Assembly: GCA_017460065.1 (NCBI GenBank)
Contig: JAFUBT010000003.1
Span: 71,134-106,018, forward strand
Reading direction: 5' to 3'
DNA length: 34,885 nucleotides
From: Candidatus Saccharimonadota bacterium
GTDB taxonomy: Bacteria; Patescibacteriota; Saccharimonadia; Saccharimonadales; Saccharimonadaceae
The notes under the pieces: generated by a model
What the model was told of the DNA's origin: nothing
Seen by the model: only the letters and a program-made list of their open reading frames with translations
Databases searched by the model: none
Position numbers and translations under genes: made by a program
In this document: in pieces, positions 11,137 to 34,885 of the stretch
How the letters are laid out: each line of letters starts with the position of its first letter
How positions within the stretch are numbered: the stretch's first letter is position 1

Positions 11137-12291
11137 ATGAATGTCACCAAAGTCCAAATCGACACCAAAACCTTTATCCGTTTCTGGCTCGTGATTATCG
11201 GTTTTGTTGCCGCTGGATATCTTATTTACAAAGCCAGCTTCGGTCTTTCCATCATCTTTGCCGCTCTCTTCTTTGCCCTCGCCATTTCACCGCTCGTCAA
11301 AACCTTCGCCAACGTCTTCCCCAGCAAGAGCCGCAATTTCGCCATTTCATTATCCTATCTGCTTATTGTCGGCTTCATTATTACATTTCTTTCCATTGTT
11401 GTGCCAACTATCATCAACGAATCCATCAAATTCTTCAGTAACCTTCCCTCCGTCTTCGATACCGCTACCGGCGACATCGGCTTAATCAACAGCATTGGTA
11501 ACACTCTCGGCATCAGCAACCTCCAAGGGCAAATCTCCCAAATCGTCCAAACTTTCTCCGATAACGTCGCCAACAATTTCGGCAGCATTCTCACCACTTC
11601 GATTTCCAATGTCGGCAGCTTTTTTGCCGTAGTTATCCTCTCCTTGGTGCTTGCTTTCTTCATGCTCACCGAAGGACCTCGCATTATGAACTATTTCTGG
11701 AAGCTACTCGGCTCTACCAAATCCACGCAACGCACCGAGCACGTCCTTAGCCGCCTTGCGCAAACCGTCTCGCAGTACGTTTCTAGTGCCGTCACTGTTG
11801 CCCTCATCAACGCCTGTGCCACCGCCATCGTCGTCTTCGTCCTTTGCCTTATCTTCCATATTTCTCCAGGGCTTGCCTTCCCCTTCGGCCTTATTACCGG
11901 CGTCTTCTGCCTTATCCCCATGTTTGGCAGCTTCATTGGTGGCGCCATTGTTGCCCTCTTACTTAGCTTTAACGCCGTCTGGGCCGGCCTTGCTTTCCTC
12001 ATCTACACCATCATTTATCTTCAAATCGAATCCAACATCATCTCGCCCAAAATCCAGGGCAAAGGCATGCGCCTCCCCGCTCTTATCATCTTGTCCGCCG
12101 TCACTATCGGTGTTTACGCTTTTGGCCTACCGGGCGCTATCATTTCCATTCCAATTGCCGGCTGCATCAAGGTCCTCATCGAAGAATTCGGTGCCGACCT
12201 CATGGACGACGGCAAGCTTAACGGCAGCCATCTCAAAACCATTAAGCCCAAAAACAAAGACAAAGACCGCCTTATCGCCAAGCACTCTTAA
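11137..12291 (+). CDS. AI-2E family membrane transporter
   Basis: A 384-aa polytopic protein of the PerM/YdiK/TqsA superfamily, with paired hydrophobic segments near the N-terminus (about 14-65), a large amphipathic middle region (about 95-170), and a cluster of helices towards the C-terminus. The segment PALIILSAVTIGVYAFGLP matches the conserved C-terminal motif of this family. Members export small molecules such as autoinducer-2 or act in ion exchange; the substrate cannot be told here. The start at 11137 begins MNVTKVQID; the frame remains open upstream inside tgt, but the promoter supports the downstream ATG. It ends tail-to-tail with cysS, overlapping by 4 nt, with no terminator between. 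Confidence 0.9.
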   Translation: MNVTKVQIDTKTFIRFWLVIIGFVAAGYLIYKASFGLSIIFAALFFALAISPLVKTFANVFPSKSRNFAISLSYLLIVGFIITFLSIVVPTIINESIKFFSNLPSVFDTATGDIGLINSIGNTLGISNLQGQISQIVQTFSDNVANNFGSILTTSISNVGSFFAVVILSLVLAFFMLTEGPRIMNYFWKLLGSTKSTQRTEHVLSRLAQTVSQYVSSAVTVALINACATAIVVFVLCLIFHISPGLAFPFGLITGVFCLIPMFGSFIGGAIVALLLSFNAVWAGLAFLIYTIIYLQIESNIISPKIQGKGMRLPALIILSAVTIGVYAFGLPGAIISIPIAGCIKVLIEEFGADLMDDGKLNGSHLKTIKPKNKDKDRLIAKHS

Positions 12292-13646
12292 TCCGCATAC
12301 TGCCAGACCGAACTTTCCGCTCCGTCTAACAGCGCAACACCTGCTGCTGCAATCTCCTCACGCAACGCATCCGCTTTCGCAAAATCACGCTGCTTTTTCG
12401 CTGCGCCGCGTTGCGCAATCTTCTCTTTTAGCTCCGCATTAATGTCCGGACTCTCTGTTATCAAATTCAAGCCAAACACCTCATCCAAAAAACGCACAAA
12501 ATCTTCATCTGGTACGCATTGCGCCACACATTTATCGAGTTCCGCCAATGCACCCGCCGAATTTAAATTATTGTTCAACTGCGCGAGTATCGCCGCTTTT
12601 ACGTCACTCATGTCGGTTGTTTGCTTTTGCCAACGCAAAGCCGCAAAGTTCCGGTAGTTCAACCGTCGCTGCCGTGCTGCTGCTAAATCTTCAAAGGAGA
12701 AGTTTCGCTCGCTCTGGTAATGCCCTTGCAGCACCCACATTTTGTAATCCATGTGCGAAAAACCTTTTGCTTGTAAATCTTTAAACTCGTACACGTTGCC
12801 CAAAGATTTTGAAATCTTCTCTCCCTCGACCGTAATAAAATTATTGTGCAACCACACATCGGCCATTTTCTGCCCGTACGCCCCCTCAAGTTCAGCAATC
12901 TCATTCGTATGATGCACTGGCACATGATCTATACCGCCCGTATGAATATCAATCGGTTCACTCAATCTTTCGTGAATAATCGTCGCACACTCCAAATGCC
13001 ATCCAGGATAGCCCATCCGCCCTCGGTATTCCCACTGCATCGCATGGTCCTCACCTTCGCGCACCCACTTCCAGACCGCAAAATCCGACACGTTACGCTT
13101 CTCTGCGCTAAAGTCTATCCGCGCCCCTGCCCGCAAATGTTCCAAATCCAACCGTGCTAGCTCGGCGTATTTCGGAAACTTTGCCGTATCGTAGTACAGG
13201 CCATCACTCGTTTCGTATAGCAATCCTTTCGCATCCAAAGCCTCCACCAAAGCAATGTCCGCCTGAATAAAATCTGTCGCTCGACAAATCTGCGTCGGCT
13301 CAATCAGGCCCAAAGCGCGAAAATTTGCCAAAAAATCATTCATGTAAATTTCGGCCACTTCCCAGACAGTCTTCCCCTCTCGCTTTGCCCCCTTCTCCAT
13401 TTTGTCTTCGCCGTCATCGGCGTCCGAAGTCAGATGCCCCACATCAGTAATATTCAAGACTCTGTCTTCCGTCCAACCATTTTGACGCAACACTCTAATC
13501 AATAAGTCCCAATACACATAAGCCGTAAAGTTACCAATGTGTGCAAAGCTATACACCGTTGGCCCACACGTATAAATTTTTACTCGCTGCGGATCACGCG
13601 GCACAAAATCTTCCAGCTTTCGGGTCAATGTATTGTATAGCTTCAT
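12288..13646 (-). CDS. cysS: Cysteinyl-tRNA synthetase
   Basis: Class I aminoacyl-tRNA synthetase charging tRNA-Cys. The 452-aa protein has the zinc/cysteine-site Cys27 (YTCGPTVY), the HIGH motif as HIGN (about 36-39), the GWHLEC and GGIDHVPVHH zinc ligands, and the KMSKS motif as KISKS (about 276-280). Length is normal, including the C-terminal anticodon-binding region (KKQRDFAKADALREE). It is the last of four genes on this strand (pyrophosphatase, SPFH, zinc-ribbon, cysS) but has its own -10. Its stop overlaps that of the convergent AI-2E gene in the palindrome TTAA. Confidence 0.97.
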   Translation of the reverse strand: MKLYNTLTRKLEDFVPRDPQRVKIYTCGPTVYSFAHIGNFTAYVYWDLLIRVLRQNGWTEDRVLNITDVGHLTSDADDGEDKMEKGAKREGKTVWEVAEIYMNDFLANFRALGLIEPTQICRATDFIQADIALVEALDAKGLLYETSDGLYYDTAKFPKYAELARLDLEHLRAGARIDFSAEKRNVSDFAVWKWVREGEDHAMQWEYRGRMGYPGWHLECATIIHERLSEPIDIHTGGIDHVPVHHTNEIAELEGAYGQKMADVWLHNNFITVEGEKISKSLGNVYEFKDLQAKGFSHMDYKMWVLQGHYQSERNFSFEDLAAARQRRLNYRNFAALRWQKQTTDMSDVKAAILAQLNNNLNSAGALAELDKCVAQCVPDEDFVRFLDEVFGLNLITESPDINAELKEKIAQRGAAKKQRDFAKADALREEIAAAGVALLDGAESSVWQYAD

Positions 13647-25957: not shown

Positions 25958-26694
25958 ATTTTCTCGTTCAAAATCGAAACTAACCCTTCTATGCTATCAT
26001 AGAACGCTATTACTTCGTCTTTTGAAAACCCAAAAATATCTCTAAAGCTTGCCTCCGCGTAATTATCCAGCAGTTCCTCCCCCTTTAATTGAAAGGCGCC
26101 GTAATCCTCAATCATGGTTTCTTCGTTTACGTTTTTACTGTCGGCGTACTTCTCGGCAAACTCCTGAGCAGCCTCCCAGTACTTGCGCAATTCGTCCGCC
26201 ATTTTGCGCAAAAACTCATTCTCATCTTCCGCCAAAGACGTCAACTGCTCGTCGTTCAGACCGTCTTCTGCGCTCACCAATTCTCGCAAAGTCTTCTCGA
26301 CACGTGCGACCTTTTCCAGCTTCGCAAAATCTTCCTTCGCCTTATCATACTGTGCGGCCACTGACTTATTCTTCAATGCCGCACTTGCGCTTAAGCTCTC
26401 CATGTATTGCGCCACCTTATCACTCGCTGCCGCAAAACTATCCAGCTTTGCTTGTGACTCATCATTCAGCTCAAACTTGTCAATTTCCGCATTCAAAAAC
26501 TCCGCCACCTCCGGCTTTGTTTTCAAAATCTCGTCAGCATAGTTACGCGCTTCTTTGCAGCCTAGATTCCCCCTTATTGCCAGCATGACGCCCAGCGTCA
26601 CGCCAAAAGCCAACACCCCCAATCCCAAGCAAATCGCAATCAATTTCCCCCTGGACAACCTTACCTTTGCTTTTCTGCTCTTAGTACGCTTCAT
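25954..26694 (-). CDS. Membrane-anchored coiled-coil protein, unknown function
   Basis: I do not recognise this 246-aa protein. A basic N-terminus (KRTKSRKAKVRLSRGK) leads into one transmembrane helix (about 18-40); the rest is highly charged, rich in Glu, Lys and Ala, and predicted helical or coiled-coil, probably outside the membrane. A cysteine (GNLGCKEARN) follows the helix but there is no true lipobox. The ATG at 26694 overlaps the upstream stop (TAATG) and has a GAGGGGG site; an in-frame GTG 18 nt upstream is less likely. It overlaps the lipid-kinase gene by 4 nt. Confidence 0.75.
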   Translation of the reverse strand: MKRTKSRKAKVRLSRGKLIAICLGLGVLAFGVTLGVMLAIRGNLGCKEARNYADEILKTKPEVAEFLNAEIDKFELNDESQAKLDSFAAASDKVAQYMESLSASAALKNKSVAAQYDKAKEDFAKLEKVARVEKTLRELVSAEDGLNDEQLTSLAEDENEFLRKMADELRKYWEAAQEFAEKYADSKNVNEETMIEDYGAFQLKGEELLDNYAEASFRDIFGFSKDEVIAFYDSIEGLVSILNEKI

Positions 26695-27296
26695 TATAGC
26701 CCCCTCACCCACAGTTCACTTGGCAGCGGCCACGCATTCGGCTGGCAGCCGCGCAAGCCCGTCGATTGTTGCAACATAATCGGCGCCAGGCCACTATCGG
26801 TCTCACATTCAACAATATGGTCATGTCCCAAGAAATGCCCCACTTCGTGGTTCACCACCATCTTGCGGTAATTCTGTAAACTTACCCCCAACTCGTTGTA
26901 GCTATCCGATCCACCCAGCCAACGGTCGTCATTAATATATACGTTCGGCTTAACCGTGCAACTTAGCTTGTCCGAACAGCCCGCACTAGCGGCGCTAATC
27001 TCTGCCGGCGAAGCCAGCAGCACATGCATCTTGCCACCGCTCTCCACCTCGGTAAATTTCACGCCAGCACGTATCCAGCCCCGGCTATCATTCAAGGTCT
27101 CAGCCACCAGGCTGCGGAATTCCTCCAGGCTCCCCCGCACTTCGCCCTTCGTAGCCACATCATAGCTGACTTCTACCACGTGCCCCTGCGCGCTCCCCGC
27201 CGCTTCGACGTAATACGAGTCGACCGTGTCCTGCACCGAAATCTGCGTCTTCATTACTTCCGCCTGCATTAACAGGCCCAGTAAGCCCTCTATCAT
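26694..27296 (-). CDS. DUF3152-type zinc metalloprotease
   Basis: A 200-aa protein with the extended zinc motif HEVGHFLGHDH (about 150-160), i.e. HExxHxxGHxH of metzincin-like peptidases, inside VVNHEVGHFLGH and followed by a Met-turn candidate (APIMLQQ). The fold and the C-terminal cysteine (RGCQPNAWPLPSE) fit the DUF3152 family, known mainly from actinobacteria. Those proteins are normally secreted or membrane-anchored, but the N-terminus here (MIEGLLGLLMQAEVM) is not a convincing signal peptide. Its start overlaps the upstream membrane-protein gene by 4 nt (ATGA). Protease activity is inferred from the motif. Confidence 0.8.
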   Translation of the reverse strand: MIEGLLGLLMQAEVMKTQISVQDTVDSYYVEAAGSAQGHVVEVSYDVATKGEVRGSLEEFRSLVAETLNDSRGWIRAGVKFTEVESGGKMHVLLASPAEISAASAGCSDKLSCTVKPNVYINDDRWLGGSDSYNELGVSLQNYRKMVVNHEVGHFLGHDHIVECETDSGLAPIMLQQSTGLRGCQPNAWPLPSELWVRGL

Positions 27297-28904: not shown

Positions 28905-31900
28905 TTAATACCAACTCGGCCGTGGCACCGTAGTCGGTACGCCATTAAACATCGTGCGCTTACTGGCCGCAGTCATTTTCGAGGTGTCCCAACCGTCCAA
29001 CGCGGTAAAACTGACAACGTTTCTGTCATTTACGAACATCTGCCCCACGTTCACTACATTCGACGTGTTCCAATTCGCTAGACCATCAACGTTCGTTAAC
29101 GCATACATATAGCCGAACATCGTATTCATCGTCGTCACGCTAGAAGTGTCCCAGTTCGCTAGTGCATTCAGGTTGGTTAAATTGCTAACACTCGCAAACG
29201 TGCTTGACATATGTGTGACCTTAGAAGTATCCCAATTCGCTAGTGCGTCTATATTAGTCAAATTGCTACTTCCAGCAAATGTCATCGTCATATTCGTGAC
29301 GCTGGAGGTGTTCCAGTTTGCTAGACCACTAATGTCGGCCAGACTCGAAGAATCTGCACAGTGGAATAGACGGGCAATATTTTCTACTTTCGACACATCC
29401 CAGTTGGACAATGCGTTTACATCAGTTAGCCTAATAAGCCCAGAAAACATACCAGACATATCTACCACGCTTGACACATCCCAGTTAGCTAACCCACGAA
29501 TATCGGCTATCTCTTCAGACGCATAGAACAGACTAGACATATCCTTTACTTTCGACACATCCCAGTTAGCCAATGCATCCACATTAGTAATAGCTCGCAC
29601 ATTCGAGAACATACCCTTCATCGTCGTCACGCTAGAAGTATCCCAGTTCGCTAGTGCATCAATACTAGTCAATCGATAGACTCCGTGGAATGTCTCTTGC
29701 ATATTTTCTACTTTCGACACATCCCAGTTAGCTAGGCCACTAATATCTGTCAACTTGTACAAACTATCGAATGCCTTATACATATCCGTAACATTTGAAG
29801 TATCCCAATCTGCCAAAAAGTCGATATTGGTCAATTCAAAGTCCTGACTAAACATTTCTCTCATGTTCGTCACATTCGAGCTATCCCAAACCGCAGGCCC
29901 ACTGATATTCTCTAGGTTTCTCAATGTATAAAACATATACGAAGAGTCCGGCGCCAAATATGCCTCTTCTGCCTCCGTGTATAGATAAATCGTATTATTG
30001 TCGTGCCAGGCCAGAATCTGCGTTTTAGAATCATCCGCAGACACAACGGCTGTTGTCACTGACGCATCCGGCGGCGCCGTGCTCCATACGATATTCGTGA
30101 TAGTTCTGTTTATCTGAAAGTGCGATTCGTGATCAGGGTTAGCTAGCCGCTTGATAGCCAAATTAAACTCCGCACCGCTCAAGAAATGGGCTGGCTTAGC
30201 AACCACATGCACTGTTCCGTCCATCGTCTTCTCGATGCCTACTTTGTGCCAAGTCGCTCGTATCACCACGTCGTCCTGTGGCATCGCAAAATAGTCATCG
30301 TTCATCATCTCAACCGGACCGTCGTCAGTAAATGCCACATAGCCGCCAAAGTTATATCCCGTGCAAACAGGCGCTGCCTCCTCAATCGCCACCGTAGCAT
30401 ACGGTGCGTAGCTTTTCGCATCGCTTGGCACGCCACTTAGGACACAGTCGGCTGGCGCATTCGCTTCATAAGATACCGTATAATCCGCCCTCAAAGTTGG
30501 TGTTAGTCCACTATTGACGTTTTCGTCTTCGCCATCTGGCAATTTCGAAGCCACCGACTCCCCCTTATTAGTCGGGAACTGACCGCCTAATCCCAAATAC
30601 TCGTCCCGTAGTCTAAGCTTAATCTCTAGCTGTGCGCGGTCTCCTAGTTGCATGCCATCTATCGTCCAACTTATCCTCGGCACTCCACCCACTTCATCTA
30701 TCGCTACACTTCCAACCGTCGCAAACACATTCTCTACCGTAAAATGATCATTATCCACTAAATCCGTCAATAGGAATGATTCATAATACGCTGGATCGCC
30801 AAACGTGGCATTAGGCAACACTTTCCCAAAGTTTACATGTTGCGCCGCAGCTTGCTCGTCAGATATGGCTTTCACGGCATCATATATTGTGTCGCCCATA
30901 TCGAACTGCACTGCGCTAAAATATGCAAAATCATATTTTTCCTTTATCAAGCGGTACAACGCCTCCTCATTCGGCGTATCGTCGTTTGGACAACCATCGG
31001 TAATAAATACCACTCGAACTTTTCTACCCGTACTCGCGTCATATTCATTAAGCAGTTGTTCTACCTCTTTTAATGCAAGATAATAGTTTGTCGTACCATA
31101 CGCATTCAGCTGATATACTGCATCGGCTACCGCGTCACGGTCGTCCGTGAAGCCACTAACGGTCTGTGCTGTTATATTGAAGCTCACTAAAGCAATTTTT
31201 CGCTCCCGTTGGCTTCTCATTCTATCGATGGTGTCCACCAAACTCTCTTTGATACGCTCAATCTTAGCATTATCCGTCATCGACCCACTCGCATCCACTA
31301 CAAACAACACATCCGTATCACTTTCACCTGGCTCTTTCGCCACTGTATCCACATCCATCGTCACAGTTGCCTTACCATAACCAGTCCAAGCCGCAGATTT
31401 CTCCATCTGCCAAGCACCGCCCTCTTTGTTGACGTAGCTAACTTTTTCCGAAGTCATTACCACGGTATTGTCGCGAATTACGCTTGGTTCAGCCGCAAAC
31501 AACTGCGCCCCCATCGCACCCGCTACCGCAATCAGCACTACATCTGCCACTGCCATAGCAGTTAGCTTACGTTTCGTAATATCCGCCTGCTTCACTTCGC
31601 GGCGCAACACAATCACGCAAATCCCCAATCCAGCAATTCCCGCCAGCACCACAGCTACGTATTTATCAATATCATCCAAAGTATTCACAACCTGCCCCAC
31701 GAACTGCGACCAGCCGTCCGTTCCCTCTGGCACGCTACCAGGCCCCTCCGGCGTTACCGGTGTTACTGGTGCACTTGGCTCTTCACTTCCTACAAAGAAG
31801 CCCGTCGCCGCCCTGTATTCTTTGCTCGTATCAAAGAGATAATTATTATCGGCAATCGCACCCTGGATCTCAACCGTATTAATAATCTCCTCATCCGTCT

Positions 31901-33536
31901 CTTCGGTCACCACATATTTGGCTTTGATTGTCACTGTACCACCAGCATCAATCGTCGGAATCAACACCACCGTGTCGCTTTTAATCGTATAGTCGCCCCC
32001 TGGCAGCAATTCCACCCCAGACAACAGCTCTTTTACAAACACATCATGGATATCATATCCTGCTGTATTTTTTACAACGATCTCAAACTCGACCTCATCC
32101 CCCACCTGGAATTTCTCTTTTTCGTTCGTAATCTTAATCGTAATCTCTGGCGAGAACAAACCAGCCACCCGCATCCATTCGCCCACAATCTCCACATCGG
32201 CCGCAGGCATCGTAAAGCTCTCATTGGCATACCAGCCCAAGAACCGATAACCTTCTGCCGCTGGATTAGCCGCCAACGCTACCGTCGCCCCAGCTGGGTA
32301 TTCCGCCGTTGCCGGCAGCAAACTTTCCGCGTTCGGTGGCAACACCGCACTATCAAATCGGTAAGTCACCTTATAAGTCTTCTTCTTAAAGCTGCCGTGC
32401 ACTACCACATCGCCTGTCGGCATCGCAAAACCATTTTCGTCCAAAACCACATCACTGGATGTCCAGCCTTCAAAGATATACTCACCCAACTCCAAACCAG
32501 CCGAGGTCGAATCAGGCGTTACGATCGCGCCCGCTTCATATGTCTTCTCGCGCGGCACCACATAACCTTCCGGGACCTCACCATCAATCACGTAAGTCAC
32601 CTTATACTGCTGAGCTGCCGGCTTTGGCGTAAAGCTCCCCACAAATGCTACGTCACCGCTCGGCATCGTAAAGCCATCACCACTTACTACCACGTCGCTT
32701 GTCTGCCAGCCCGAGAACACATAACCGTCAACTTCCGGTACCGCCGCTACGCCCACCGTCAAATCGGCGCTATAGCTCTGCTCTTCTGGTACCGCTGGCG
32801 CACCCGCAGGCACATCACCCGTATAAGCATAAGTCACTTTATAGATTGGCGTCTTCTCACGCCCCATCCATACATGCGCCGTGTTCGAGTTCAAGTTCAA
32901 CAAACCCTCACTCAAATTCGCTGTATTATAAAAGTCCATCCGCTGCGCTGCGCCCAACTGCGGCGTCTTTGTAACCACACCAACCGTCAGCTCACAGCCC
33001 GCCTGAATTTGCGCCGTCCGAAAACTCACCGTCCGTGTGTTCGCATTATAATGCAGCCCATGATAAGTATATTCACTATGATCCGCATTCCAGGCGCCCG
33101 TATCCGTTGCCGCCTCCTGCGTATCATCAATCACCTCGCCCGAGCAAGTCGTAGTCGCATCATCGCGCGCCACCGCGCCAATACTTCCGTTCGCCGTCGT
33201 GATAAAGCCCACGAACTCCAAGCCCGCCGGCAACTTATCCGTCACCGTCGCTTGTCCACTGAGAATCTCCGCCCGTGTATTATCGTTCGACTGCACACCA
33301 TTCTTGTCCACCCCATCCGCCTTAACGGTCAGGTAATAGGTCAATTCCGTTTCTTCCGCGACCCGCGCCCCATTCTCCAAAGCCTGCGAATTCAAACCCC
33401 CGTTATATACCAAAGTGGCCAACACGGCCACTAAACAAATCAATCCAAAAACTATCACTCCAGCAAAAAAATTTGCCTTATTCCGCACCTGCGCAACACT
33501 CCGCTGAGCAAACTCAGCCTCACCAAAAGACTTCAT
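28905..33536 (-). CDS. Giant surface protein: B-repeats, vWA domain and BspA/DUF285 repeats
   Basis: A 1543-aa envelope protein. Order: cytoplasmic N-terminus; transmembrane helix 1 (about 23-45); DUF11-like region; three InlB-B/Flg_new-type repeats (about 227-455, each with GYxFxGW and a MPxxDV segment); a second DUF11-like domain (about 465-570); transmembrane helix 2 (about 624-645); a basic loop (RREVKQADITKRK); transmembrane helix 3 (about 659-680); a von Willebrand A domain with intact MIDAS DASGSM (about 750), GTTNYY and ITDG; one more B-repeat-like unit (about 1018-1100); and about 12 DUF285 repeats of 27 aa (NWDTSxVTxMxxMF) to the end, RPSWY. Both large parts should face outside. AAGGAG precedes the ATG. 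Likely an adhesin for host-cell or matrix binding; ligand unknown. Confidence 0.9.
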   Translation of the reverse strand: MKSFGEAEFAQRSVAQVRNKANFFAGVIVFGLICLVAVLATLVYNGGLNSQALENGARVAEETELTYYLTVKADGVDKNGVQSNDNTRAEILSGQATVTDKLPAGLEFVGFITTANGSIGAVARDDATTTCSGEVIDDTQEAATDTGAWNADHSEYTYHGLHYNANTRTVSFRTAQIQAGCELTVGVVTKTPQLGAAQRMDFYNTANLSEGLLNLNSNTAHVWMGREKTPIYKVTYAYTGDVPAGAPAVPEEQSYSADLTVGVAAVPEVDGYVFSGWQTSDVVVSGDGFTMPSGDVAFVGSFTPKPAAQQYKVTYVIDGEVPEGYVVPREKTYEAGAIVTPDSTSAGLELGEYIFEGWTSSDVVLDENGFAMPTGDVVVHGSFKKKTYKVTYRFDSAVLPPNAESLLPATAEYPAGATVALAANPAAEGYRFLGWYANESFTMPAADVEIVGEWMRVAGLFSPEITIKITNEKEKFQVGDEVEFEIVVKNTAGYDIHDVFVKELLSGVELLPGGDYTIKSDTVVLIPTIDAGGTVTIKAKYVVTEETDEEIINTVEIQGAIADNNYLFDTSKEYRAATGFFVGSEEPSAPVTPVTPEGPGSVPEGTDGWSQFVGQVVNTLDDIDKYVAVVLAGIAGLGICVIVLRREVKQADITKRKLTAMAVADVVLIAVAGAMGAQLFAAEPSVIRDNTVVMTSEKVSYVNKEGGAWQMEKSAAWTGYGKATVTMDVDTVAKEPGESDTDVLFVVDASGSMTDNAKIERIKESLVDTIDRMRSQRERKIALVSFNITAQTVSGFTDDRDAVADAVYQLNAYGTTNYYLALKEVEQLLNEYDASTGRKVRVVFITDGCPNDDTPNEEALYRLIKEKYDFAYFSAVQFDMGDTIYDAVKAISDEQAAAQHVNFGKVLPNATFGDPAYYESFLLTDLVDNDHFTVENVFATVGSVAIDEVGGVPRISWTIDGMQLGDRAQLEIKLRLRDEYLGLGGQFPTNKGESVASKLPDGEDENVNSGLTPTLRADYTVSYEANAPADCVLSGVPSDAKSYAPYATVAIEEAAPVCTGYNFGGYVAFTDDGPVEMMNDDYFAMPQDDVVIRATWHKVGIEKTMDGTVHVVAKPAHFLSGAEFNLAIKRLANPDHESHFQINRTITNIVWSTAPPDASVTTAVVSADDSKTQILAWHDNNTIYLYTEAEEAYLAPDSSYMFYTLRNLENISGPAVWDSSNVTNMREMFSQDFELTNIDFLADWDTSNVTDMYKAFDSLYKLTDISGLANWDVSKVENMQETFHGVYRLTSIDALANWDTSSVTTMKGMFSNVRAITNVDALANWDVSKVKDMSSLFYASEEIADIRGLANWDVSSVVDMSGMFSGLIRLTDVNALSNWDVSKVENIARLFHCADSSSLADISGLANWNTSSVTNMTMTFAGSSNLTNIDALANWDTSKVTHMSSTFASVSNLTNLNALANWDTSSVTTMNTMFGYMYALTNVDGLANWNTSNVVNVGQMFVNDRNVVSFTALDGWDTSKMTAASKRTMFNGVPTTVPRPSWY

Positions 33537-33546
33537 GGGCCTCCTT

Positions 33547-33893: not shown

Positions 33894-34885
33894 TTAATAC
33901 CAATCTGGGCGGAAGATGGCGTTATGGATACCATAGAACATATTTGACTTGTCGGTAACCTTAGCGGTATTCCAGCCGTTTAAAGGAGAGAGGTTGGTTA
34001 TCTTGGTGTCACCATAAAACATGTTGCTCATGTCTGTCACGTTGGAGGTGTCCCAATTGGAGATGCCGCTAATATCATTGAGGCTAGTAGCCTTGTAAAA
34101 CATGGAGTCCATCTTCGTTACGTTGGAGGTGTCCCAGCTATTTAAAGGAGAGAGGTTGGTTATCTCGGTATTGTGGTAAAACATGCCACTCATACGTGTC
34201 ACGTTGGAGGTGTCCCAATTGGAGGCGCCGTCGATATTTGAGAGGCTGGTCGCCTCATAAAACATCTCCAGCAGACTTGTTGCTTCTGAAGTATCCCAAC
34301 TGGAAGCGCCGTCGATGTTCTTAAGCCCAGTAGCACCAGAGAACATCCGATATATGTATTTTACTTTTGACGTGTTCCAATTGGAAGCGCCGTCGATGTT
34401 GATGAGACTGGTGGCGTTGCGAAACATGTAAACCATAGTTGTAACACTGGAGGTGTCCCAGTTTAAGGCGCCGTCGATGTTGACGAGACTGGCGGCACCG
34501 GAGAACATGGATTCCATAGTCGTCACCTTGGAGGTGTCCCAGCCTGAAAGTGCGTCGATATTTGAGATTTTAGTGCTGGAGAACATGGAACTCATATACG
34601 TCACGTTGGAGGTGTCCCAGCCTGAAAGTGCATCGATATTTGAAATATTAGTGCTGGAGAACATGGCGCCCATACTCTCCACGCTAGAGGTATCCCAGCC
34701 TGAAAGTGCATCGATATTTGAAATTATAGTTCTGGAGAACATGCCGCTCATATGCGTCACACTGGAGGTATCCCAGCCTGAAAGTGCGTCGATATTTGAG
34801 ATTTTAGTGCTGGAGAACATGGAGTCCATCCTCGTCACGCTGGCGGTATTCCAGGCTGAGAGTGCGTCGATATTTGAGATTTTAG
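33894..34885 (-). CDS. BspA/DUF285 repeat surface protein, 5' end outside the window
   Basis: At least 330 residues of a DUF285 (BspA leucine-rich-like) protein. The frame runs through the window edge with no start; the internal ATG codons are part of repeats. Units follow IxNIDALSGWDTSxVTxMxxMF. Towards the edge they are exactly 26 aa and nearly identical; nearer the C-terminus they diverge (INIDGASNW, ITNLSPLN). The protein ends FRPDWY, like RPSWY of the neighbouring surface gene, which suggests a shared C-terminal cap. No signal peptide or anchor can be seen because the N-terminus is missing. Coding-strand base bias differs from genes to its left. Likely a surface adhesin. Confidence 0.88.
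   Translation of the reverse strand, partial: KISNIDALSAWNTASVTRMDSMFSSTKISNIDALSGWDTSSVTHMSGMFSRTIISNIDALSGWDTSSVESMGAMFSSTNISNIDALSGWDTSNVTYMSSMFSSTKISNIDALSGWDTSKVTTMESMFSGAASLVNIDGALNWDTSSVTTMVYMFRNATSLINIDGASNWNTSKVKYIYRMFSGATGLKNIDGASSWDTSEATSLLEMFYEATSLSNIDGASNWDTSNVTRMSGMFYHNTEITNLSPLNSWDTSNVTKMDSMFYKATSLNDISGISNWDTSNVTDMSNMFYGDTKITNLSPLNGWNTAKVTDKSNMFYGIHNAIFRPDWY
34473..34885 (-). repeat. 78-bp tandem repeats within the DUF285 gene
   Basis: The element TGCRTCGATA recurs starting at 34551, 34629, 34707, 34785 and 34863, exactly 78 bp (26 codons) apart. Units share long identical blocks (CAGCCTGAAAGTGC, GAGAACATGG), indicating recent duplication, and continue beyond the window. Such arrays can gain or lose units without frameshift. 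Confidence 0.85.

What the first reader, a model, noticed from the sequence alone, without database searches (positions are those of the whole stretch)
28905..33536. Two surface proteins fused into one three-helix envelope protein
Residues 1-645 look like a complete surface protein with an N-terminal membrane helix and a C-terminal anchor helix. After a short basic loop, residues 659 onward look like a new signal peptide (ending near AQLFAAE) followed by vWA and DUF285 domains. With three helices and a positive loop between helices 2 and 3, both halves would face outwards. This is an uncommon architecture and may tether two adhesive arms to one anchor.
Basis: partly seen in the sequence, partly recalled or inferred. 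Interest (0 to 1): 0.6.

Follow-up and report, generated by a model that had tools for sequence, protein, structure and literature searches.

The report
Fused double adhesin with internal signal peptide
A gene in a tiny gut/rumen-type Saccharibacterium joins two adhesive surface proteins, which in relatives are separate neighbouring genes, into one chain; the join keeps an internal export signal, so the chain is probably exported as two outward-facing arms and may then be cut in two.

Summary
One intact 1,543-aa ORF (28905-33536, minus) has helices at 25-43, 626-644 and 658-676 and a basic loop (net +4). It carries an Ig-like/InlB-repeat/DUF11 arm, then a vWA arm with 11 DUF285 (PARCEL) repeats. 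It is not a sequencing error: at least 32 fused homologues exist in 10 of 45 genomes of the genus. In other genomes the halves are adjacent separate genes (N to C in four genomes, C to N in two), and ruminant-gut Bacillota MAGs have them separate or fused. The N-arm is normally the first gene of an FctA/SipA/class-B-sortase pilus operon, and the fused gene takes that place in several genomes. The C-arm vWA resembles pilus-tip adhesins (PitA, SpaC, RrgA). At the join most relatives keep both a VPxTG sorting signal before helix 2 and a signal-peptidase-like V-x-A site after helix 3. I therefore favour a polyprotein with an internal signal peptide over two arms tethered to one anchor. This window's copy has lost VPxTG and has a weaker site (LFA|A), so tethering remains possible here. 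Cleavage is untested. In passing, a class-B sortase clade carries in-frame TGA at conserved Trp codons.

The parts
33540..33546 (-). Shine-Dalgarno AAGGAGG before the ATG of the fused gene
   Evidence: sequence read directly
28905..33536 (-). fused surface-protein gene, 1543 aa
   Evidence: fused homologues
33408..33464 (-). helix 1 (residues 25-43), signal peptide or signal anchor of the N-arm
   Evidence: hydropathy; AF2 helix
32847..33404 (-). N-arm domain N1 (residues 45-230), no Pfam name; all-beta in AF2
32157..32846 (-). InlB-type/Flg_new/SHIRT repeats (residues 231-460)
31842..32144 (-). DUF11 domain (residues 465-565)
31605..31661 (-). helix 2 (residues 626-644), C-terminal anchor of the N-arm; VPxTG sorting motif of relatives absent here
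31566..31601 (-). basic cytoplasmic loop (residues 646-657)
31509..31565 (-). helix 3 (residues 658-676), internal signal-peptide-like segment of the C-arm; weakly hydrophobic with D665 inside
31488..31502 (-). putative signal peptidase I site LFA|AE (residues 679-683)
   Evidence: alignment of the junction
30849..31313 (-). vWA domain with intact MIDAS (residues 742-896)
30207..30659 (-). beta-rich middle domain of the C-arm (residues 960-1110)
28908..29939 (-). DUF285/PARCEL repeats (about residues 1200-1543), 11 units of about 27 aa, ending RPSWY
33894..34883 (-). cut-off DUF285 protein upstream, probably the C-terminal part of a paralogue; the contig ends here

Best explanation
The gene arose by in-frame fusion of two neighbouring surface-protein genes. 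The first encodes an Ig-like/InlB-repeat stalk protein of the kind that heads a sortase-pilus operon in relatives. The second encodes a vWA plus PARCEL-repeat adhesin. The product is exported by Sec: helix 1 starts export of arm 1, helix 2 stops it, the basic loop stays inside, and helix 3 restarts export of arm 2 as an internal signal peptide. Both arms therefore end up outside. My preferred reading is that signal peptidase I then cuts after helix 3 (near 681/682), giving two surface proteins from one chain in 1:1 ratio; arm 1 stays in the membrane by helix 2 (in most relatives it is also a likely pilus-sortase substrate). Shown: fusion, domain content, helices, conservation of the junction motifs. 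Inferred: topology, Sec handling, cleavage, adhesion.
For: Fused ORFs with the same three helices in 10 genomes of the genus, including 14 copies in one genome. Separate adjacent genes in the same order with 0-50 nt gap or overlap (L045, L053, L055, L057) or in reverse order (L063, L064). Separate C-arms begin with a signal peptide and have no other hydrophobic segment. All loops are net positive, +3 to +19. SPase-like [AVSTLIGC]-x-A triple within 10 aa after the helix-3 core in 19/19 non-redundant fused proteins, 3/19 after helix 2, 49% in shuffles. Helix 3 is less hydrophobic than helix 2 in 26/32. A true signal peptidase I is present in the genome. vWA MIDAS intact; best folds are the pilus tip adhesins PitA, Mfa5, SpaC, RrgA, GBS104. 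Fused gene or N-arm heads pilin-sip-sortase operons in many genomes.
Against: No cleavage has been measured. P0001's own site has Leu at -3 (or Phe in the alternative register), which is weaker than the V/A/S/T of relatives. If cut, arm 2 has no visible anchor. The one Bacillota fusion (L135) lacks the SPase-like triple, so an uncleaved anchor is viable somewhere in the family. This gene is not next to a pilus operon: its genome's island lies about 66 kb away. Fused rows are related, so motif counts are not independent events.
Confidence: 0.55

Rival explanations
1. Tethered double arm: helix 3 is not cleaved, and one chain with a helix 2-loop-helix 3 hairpin holds two adhesive arms at one membrane anchor.
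For: Helix 3 is modelled as a 23-residue helix. P0001 lacks the sortase motif and has a weak SPase site. Bacillota homologues have C-arms with long cytoplasmic N-termini before the helix, typical of signal anchors, and the L135 fusion lacks the motif. Without an anchor the C-arm would be lost.
Against: SPase-like motif kept in all Saccharibacterial fusions scored, although the helix-3 sequences have diverged. VPxTG-type signals kept before helix 2 in most relatives; cutting there would release arm 1. Helix 3 in P0001 is weakly hydrophobic with an Asp inside.
Confidence: 0.35
2. Assembly or sequencing artefact that joined two genes.
For: The window is from a draft MAG, and the contig ends 1.3 kb beyond the gene inside repeats.
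Against: Fused homologues of 1,470-1,990 aa from many independent assemblies, with the junction at the same place; trees of each arm put P0001 with other fused proteins.
Confidence: 0.02
3. Non-functional read-through: the fusion is neutral decay of a former operon pair and only the N-arm matters.
For: The gene lies outside the pilus operon and lost VPxTG.
Against: MIDAS intact, C-arm domains complete, no stops in any fused ORF, and many paralogues kept (14 in G042).
Confidence: 0.05

Closest known systems
PitA and the pilus islet 2 (pitA-sipA-pitB-srtG1) of Mitis-group streptococci
   Same: vWA adhesin with MIDAS, best Foldseek hit of the C-arm region (7w6b); islet with SipA-like protein, pilin and sortase (PMC3178606) as in relatives here
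   Different: PitA carries its own C-terminal VPETG sorting signal; here the vWA part lies after a sorting-signal-like helix, has none of its own and ends in PARCEL repeats
FCT pilus region of Streptococcus pyogenes (Cpa, SipA, FctA, class B SrtC)
   Same: relatives' operons have an FctA/Spy0128-type pilin, a SipA-like protein without catalytic Ser and a class B sortase; sorting motifs VPPTG/QVPTG/EVPTG resemble VPxTG here (PMC7900414; PMC4049620)
   Different: Cpa is a single protein with the sorting signal at its end; here the first-gene protein is often fused to a second secreted protein
DUF285/PARCEL repeat surface proteins (mycoplasmas, ruminant and gut bacteria)
   Same: TIGR02167/DUF285 repeats in tandem at the end of the C-arm (PMC2996958)
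   Different: in mycoplasmas usually lipoproteins; here joined to a vWA domain and a second arm
FbcH polyprotein of Bradyrhizobium japonicum (cytochrome b plus c1, cut at an internal signal peptide); from my own knowledge, not found in the library
   Same: two membrane/exported proteins from one gene with an internal signal peptide between them
   Different: respiratory proteins, not adhesins; there cleavage was shown, here it is inferred

Membership tests
Sortase-pilus adhesin (FCT/PI-2 type) | gene lies in an operon with pilin, SipA-like protein and class B sortase | tested here: not met
   P0001 has none of these beside it; its genome's island is at G000:C8:31.6-33.8k. Met for relatives L036, L041 (fused) and L053, L055, L059, L066, L067, L068, L085, L089 (N-arm)
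Sortase-pilus adhesin (FCT/PI-2 type) | LPXTG-like sorting signal (VPxTG), hydrophobic helix, basic tail | tested here: not met
   P0001 has helix and basic tail but no xPxTG before helix 2; 25 of 33 fused proteins match strictly, and TPTG or SPATG in three more
Sortase-pilus adhesin (FCT/PI-2 type) | vWA domain with MIDAS of the pilus-tip kind | tested here: met
DUF285/PARCEL surface proteins | tandem 26-27-residue TIGR02167/DUF285 repeats | tested here: met
Polyprotein with internal signal peptide | two complete export units in one frame without internal translation start | tested here: met
   single ORF, SD only at the first ATG, no SD near helix 3
Polyprotein with internal signal peptide | signal-peptidase motif after the internal hydrophobic segment | tested here: inconclusive
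   19/19 relatives fit; P0001 has LFA|A with Leu at -3
Polyprotein with internal signal peptide | actual cleavage into two proteins | not testable with these tools
   needs N-terminal proteomics or immunoblot

The most novel reading that the evidence does not exclude
A family of bacterial surface polyproteins in which one chain carries signal peptide, arm 1, pilus-sortase signal, signal peptide and arm 2, so that sortase and signal peptidase together turn one gene product into a pilus-type stalk protein and a separate vWA/PARCEL adhesin at fixed 1:1 ratio. The fusion seems to have arisen or been lost more than once, on the surface of Saccharibacteria that live by attaching to other cells.
Probability: 0.4. 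Interest if true: 0.75.

Novelty: new variant of a known kind. Interest (0 to 1): 0.55.

Why it matters
Saccharibacteria live by attaching to other bacteria, and apart from type IV pili few of their binding proteins are known. The papers checked here on type IV pili (PMC12206443) and on genetics of the epibiotic lifestyle (PMC10633639) do not mention sortases. This gene leads to a whole family in one genus: FctA-type pilin, SipA-like protein and class B sortase operons headed by an N-arm protein that is often fused to a vWA/PARCEL adhesin, and shared with Bacillota of the ruminant gut. If the internal signal peptide works, it is a natural bacterial adhesin polyprotein with a defined cut site that can be tested with one antibody or one peptide.

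Tried and rejected
Sequencing error as cause of the fusion: rejected. Internal translation start giving a separate C-arm: no SD near helix 3. Single origin of all fused forms: rejected for the N-arm tree (AU p = 0.017), not rejected for the C-arm tree (p = 0.09), and long branches make both unsure. Scan of named genome contigs with the single protein found nothing, with the alignment it worked. Relatives in phages or viral contigs: none beyond a weak InlB-repeat match. PDB sequence search with the N-arm profile: nothing; fold search with the N-arm model: only generic Ig-like stalks with TM under 0.2. Library search for the FbcH precedent and for bacterial internal-signal-peptide polyproteins: nothing useful.

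Full report
Observation. The minus-strand ORF 28905-33536 is real and open: 1,543 aa, ATG start, AAGGAGG four bases before it. Hydropathy gives three segments, 25-43, 626-644 and 658-676. AlphaFold2 on an alignment of 36 relatives models helices at 623-650 and 657-679 followed by a confident vWA domain (mean pLDDT 84). Pfam finds InlB-type repeats, SHIRT and DUF11 in the first arm, and vWA and DUF285 in the second. NCBIfam calls the DUF285 part PARCEL repeats; 11 units at about 27-residue spacing end in RPSWY. The MIDAS residues are intact.

Not an artefact. In 32 of 44 other same-genus genomes, and in a few beyond, the protein finds matches. Domain mapping of fetched loci shows fused ORFs of about 1,470-1,990 aa with the same order and three helices in G003, G004, G021, G026, G034, G036, G038, G042 and G044 besides the window's genome. 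G042 alone has 14 copies. Some fused ORFs are cut by contig ends. Named records show these are rumen, goat, sheep, horse-faeces and similar MAGs.

Separate halves. In G022, G025, G032 and G043 the two halves are neighbouring genes in the same order, touching or overlapping by up to about 50 nt by mechanical start (L055, L057, L053, L045). In G017 and G010 the order is reversed (L064, L063). In MAGs labelled Bacilli, Clostridia or Erysipelotrichaceae from ruminant gut the pair is also separate, vWA gene first (L112, L113, L115, L116, L121, L122, L134, L139), and one Bacillales MAG has a fused form (L135). These labels rest on record titles; binning errors were not tested. Trees of the two arms place P0001 with fused L039, L041, L047 and L048 (88/91 and 87/75 support). 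Fused forms are not one clade on the N-arm tree (AU p = 0.017), undecided on the C-arm tree (p = 0.09), so more than one fusion or fission is likely but not proven.

The junction. In 33 fused proteins the loop between helices 2 and 3 is always net positive, +3 to +19, which fits an inside loop and two outside arms. Just before helix 2, 25 of 33 have VPxTG or PVLTG (three more have TPTG or SPATG), resembling the FctA-type pilins' own ends here (ILTGV, SPKTGV, VATGV) and the VPPTG/QVPTG/EVPTG motifs of S. pyogenes pili (PMC7900414). After helix 3, every one of 19 non-redundant Saccharibacterial fusions has an [AVSTLIGC]-x-A triple within 10 residues; after helix 2 only 3 do; shuffled sequences give 49%. 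Helix 3 is less hydrophobic than helix 2 in 26 of 32. Separate C-arms start with an ordinary signal peptide ending in the same kind of motif and have no other hydrophobic segment. So the fused proteins look like two complete export units placed back to back. P0001 differs: no VPxTG, and LFA|A with Leu at -3.

Genomic setting. In relatives the N-arm gene is followed by an FctA/DUF7601 pilin, a SipA-like signal-peptidase homologue and a class B sortase. The SipA-like protein lacks the catalytic Ser (GMNPNLKDGE or AMNPxLKDGE), as does streptococcal SipA (PMC4049620). In L036 and L041 the fused gene sits in exactly that first place, and in L042, L046 and L047 it is followed by the pilin. In G022, G032 and G033 the island lies between dnaE and a TlyA-like methyltransferase gene; in the window those two genes touch (24482/24483) and the fused gene lies 4 kb further on. 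The window genome has its own pilin-sip-sortase island about 66 kb away on the same contig.

Mechanism. Best reading: Sec export with helix 1 in, helix 2 stop, helix 3 as internal signal peptide, then signal peptidase I cutting near 681/682, giving an anchored stalk-like arm and a vWA/PARCEL adhesive arm. A true signal peptidase I is present. The C-arm's nearest solved relatives are pilus-tip adhesins (PitA, Mfa5, SpaC, RrgA, GBS104), so binding to another cell is the likely use; the target is unknown. How a cut C-arm stays on the cell is not explained; binding to the N-arm is a guess.

Membership. P0001 fails two defining tests of a sortase-pilus adhesin (operon, sorting signal) and is not filed as one; it works like, and descends from, such proteins. 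It is a PARCEL/DUF285 protein by test. It meets the sequence side of a polyprotein with internal signal peptide; cleavage is untested.

Verdict. Real, widespread within one genus, new variant of a known kind; the most novel reading is a processed adhesin polyprotein.

Noticed in passing
L144-L151, L153, L154, L158; own genome G000:C8:31650-32312 (L179 about 11744-12410): A clade of class B sortases in this genus carries, mostly, exactly one in-frame TGA with an intact catalytic LLSTC after it. Several TGAs sit at conserved Trp columns (TGA at W174 in six genes where L149 and L150 have W; TGA at W68 in L149 and L150 where 21 of 25 have W). In the genus search TGA is the in-frame stop in 14 of 63 sortase matches, TAA in one, TAG in none. 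Downstream codons are under purifying selection in pairwise comparisons (pN/pS 0.3-0.55). RF2 is present, TGA ends 64 of 500 ORFs and no UCA tRNA was found in the window's genome. This suggests read-through of UGA as Trp, perhaps to limit sortase synthesis; in the window genome's own sortase the TGA is near the start and could be avoided by a later start.
   Followed up: partly
L139:1586-1635, L134:1-50, also L113 and L116: The vWA genes of ruminant-gut Bacillota MAGs begin with (AGAC)n tetranucleotide repeats (12.5 perfect copies), read as DRQTDRQT: a candidate for phase-variable expression by slippage.
   Followed up: partly
L110, L112, L113, L116, L119, L122, L134, C-terminus of the N-arm protein: Bacillota N-arm proteins without a C-terminal helix end in a shared motif, NKVVQGGN / NQIVQGGS / VNEIKGGE / KNTVLGGN, possibly another attachment signal.
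   Followed up: no
window 33894-34883: DUF285 repeat protein cut by the contig end, ending IFRPDWY like the fused protein (SWY); probably the tail of a paralogue.
   Followed up: partly
window 26694-27296: DUF3152 protein with a zinc-metalloprotease-like HEVGHFLGHDH motif between two small membrane proteins; the set is also conserved near dnaE in relatives.
   Followed up: no
G042 (L034-L036, L073-L083): One Saccharibacterial genome carries about 14 fused copies whose loop between helices 2 and 3 varies while the VPLTG and V-x-A ends stay fixed.
   Followed up: partly
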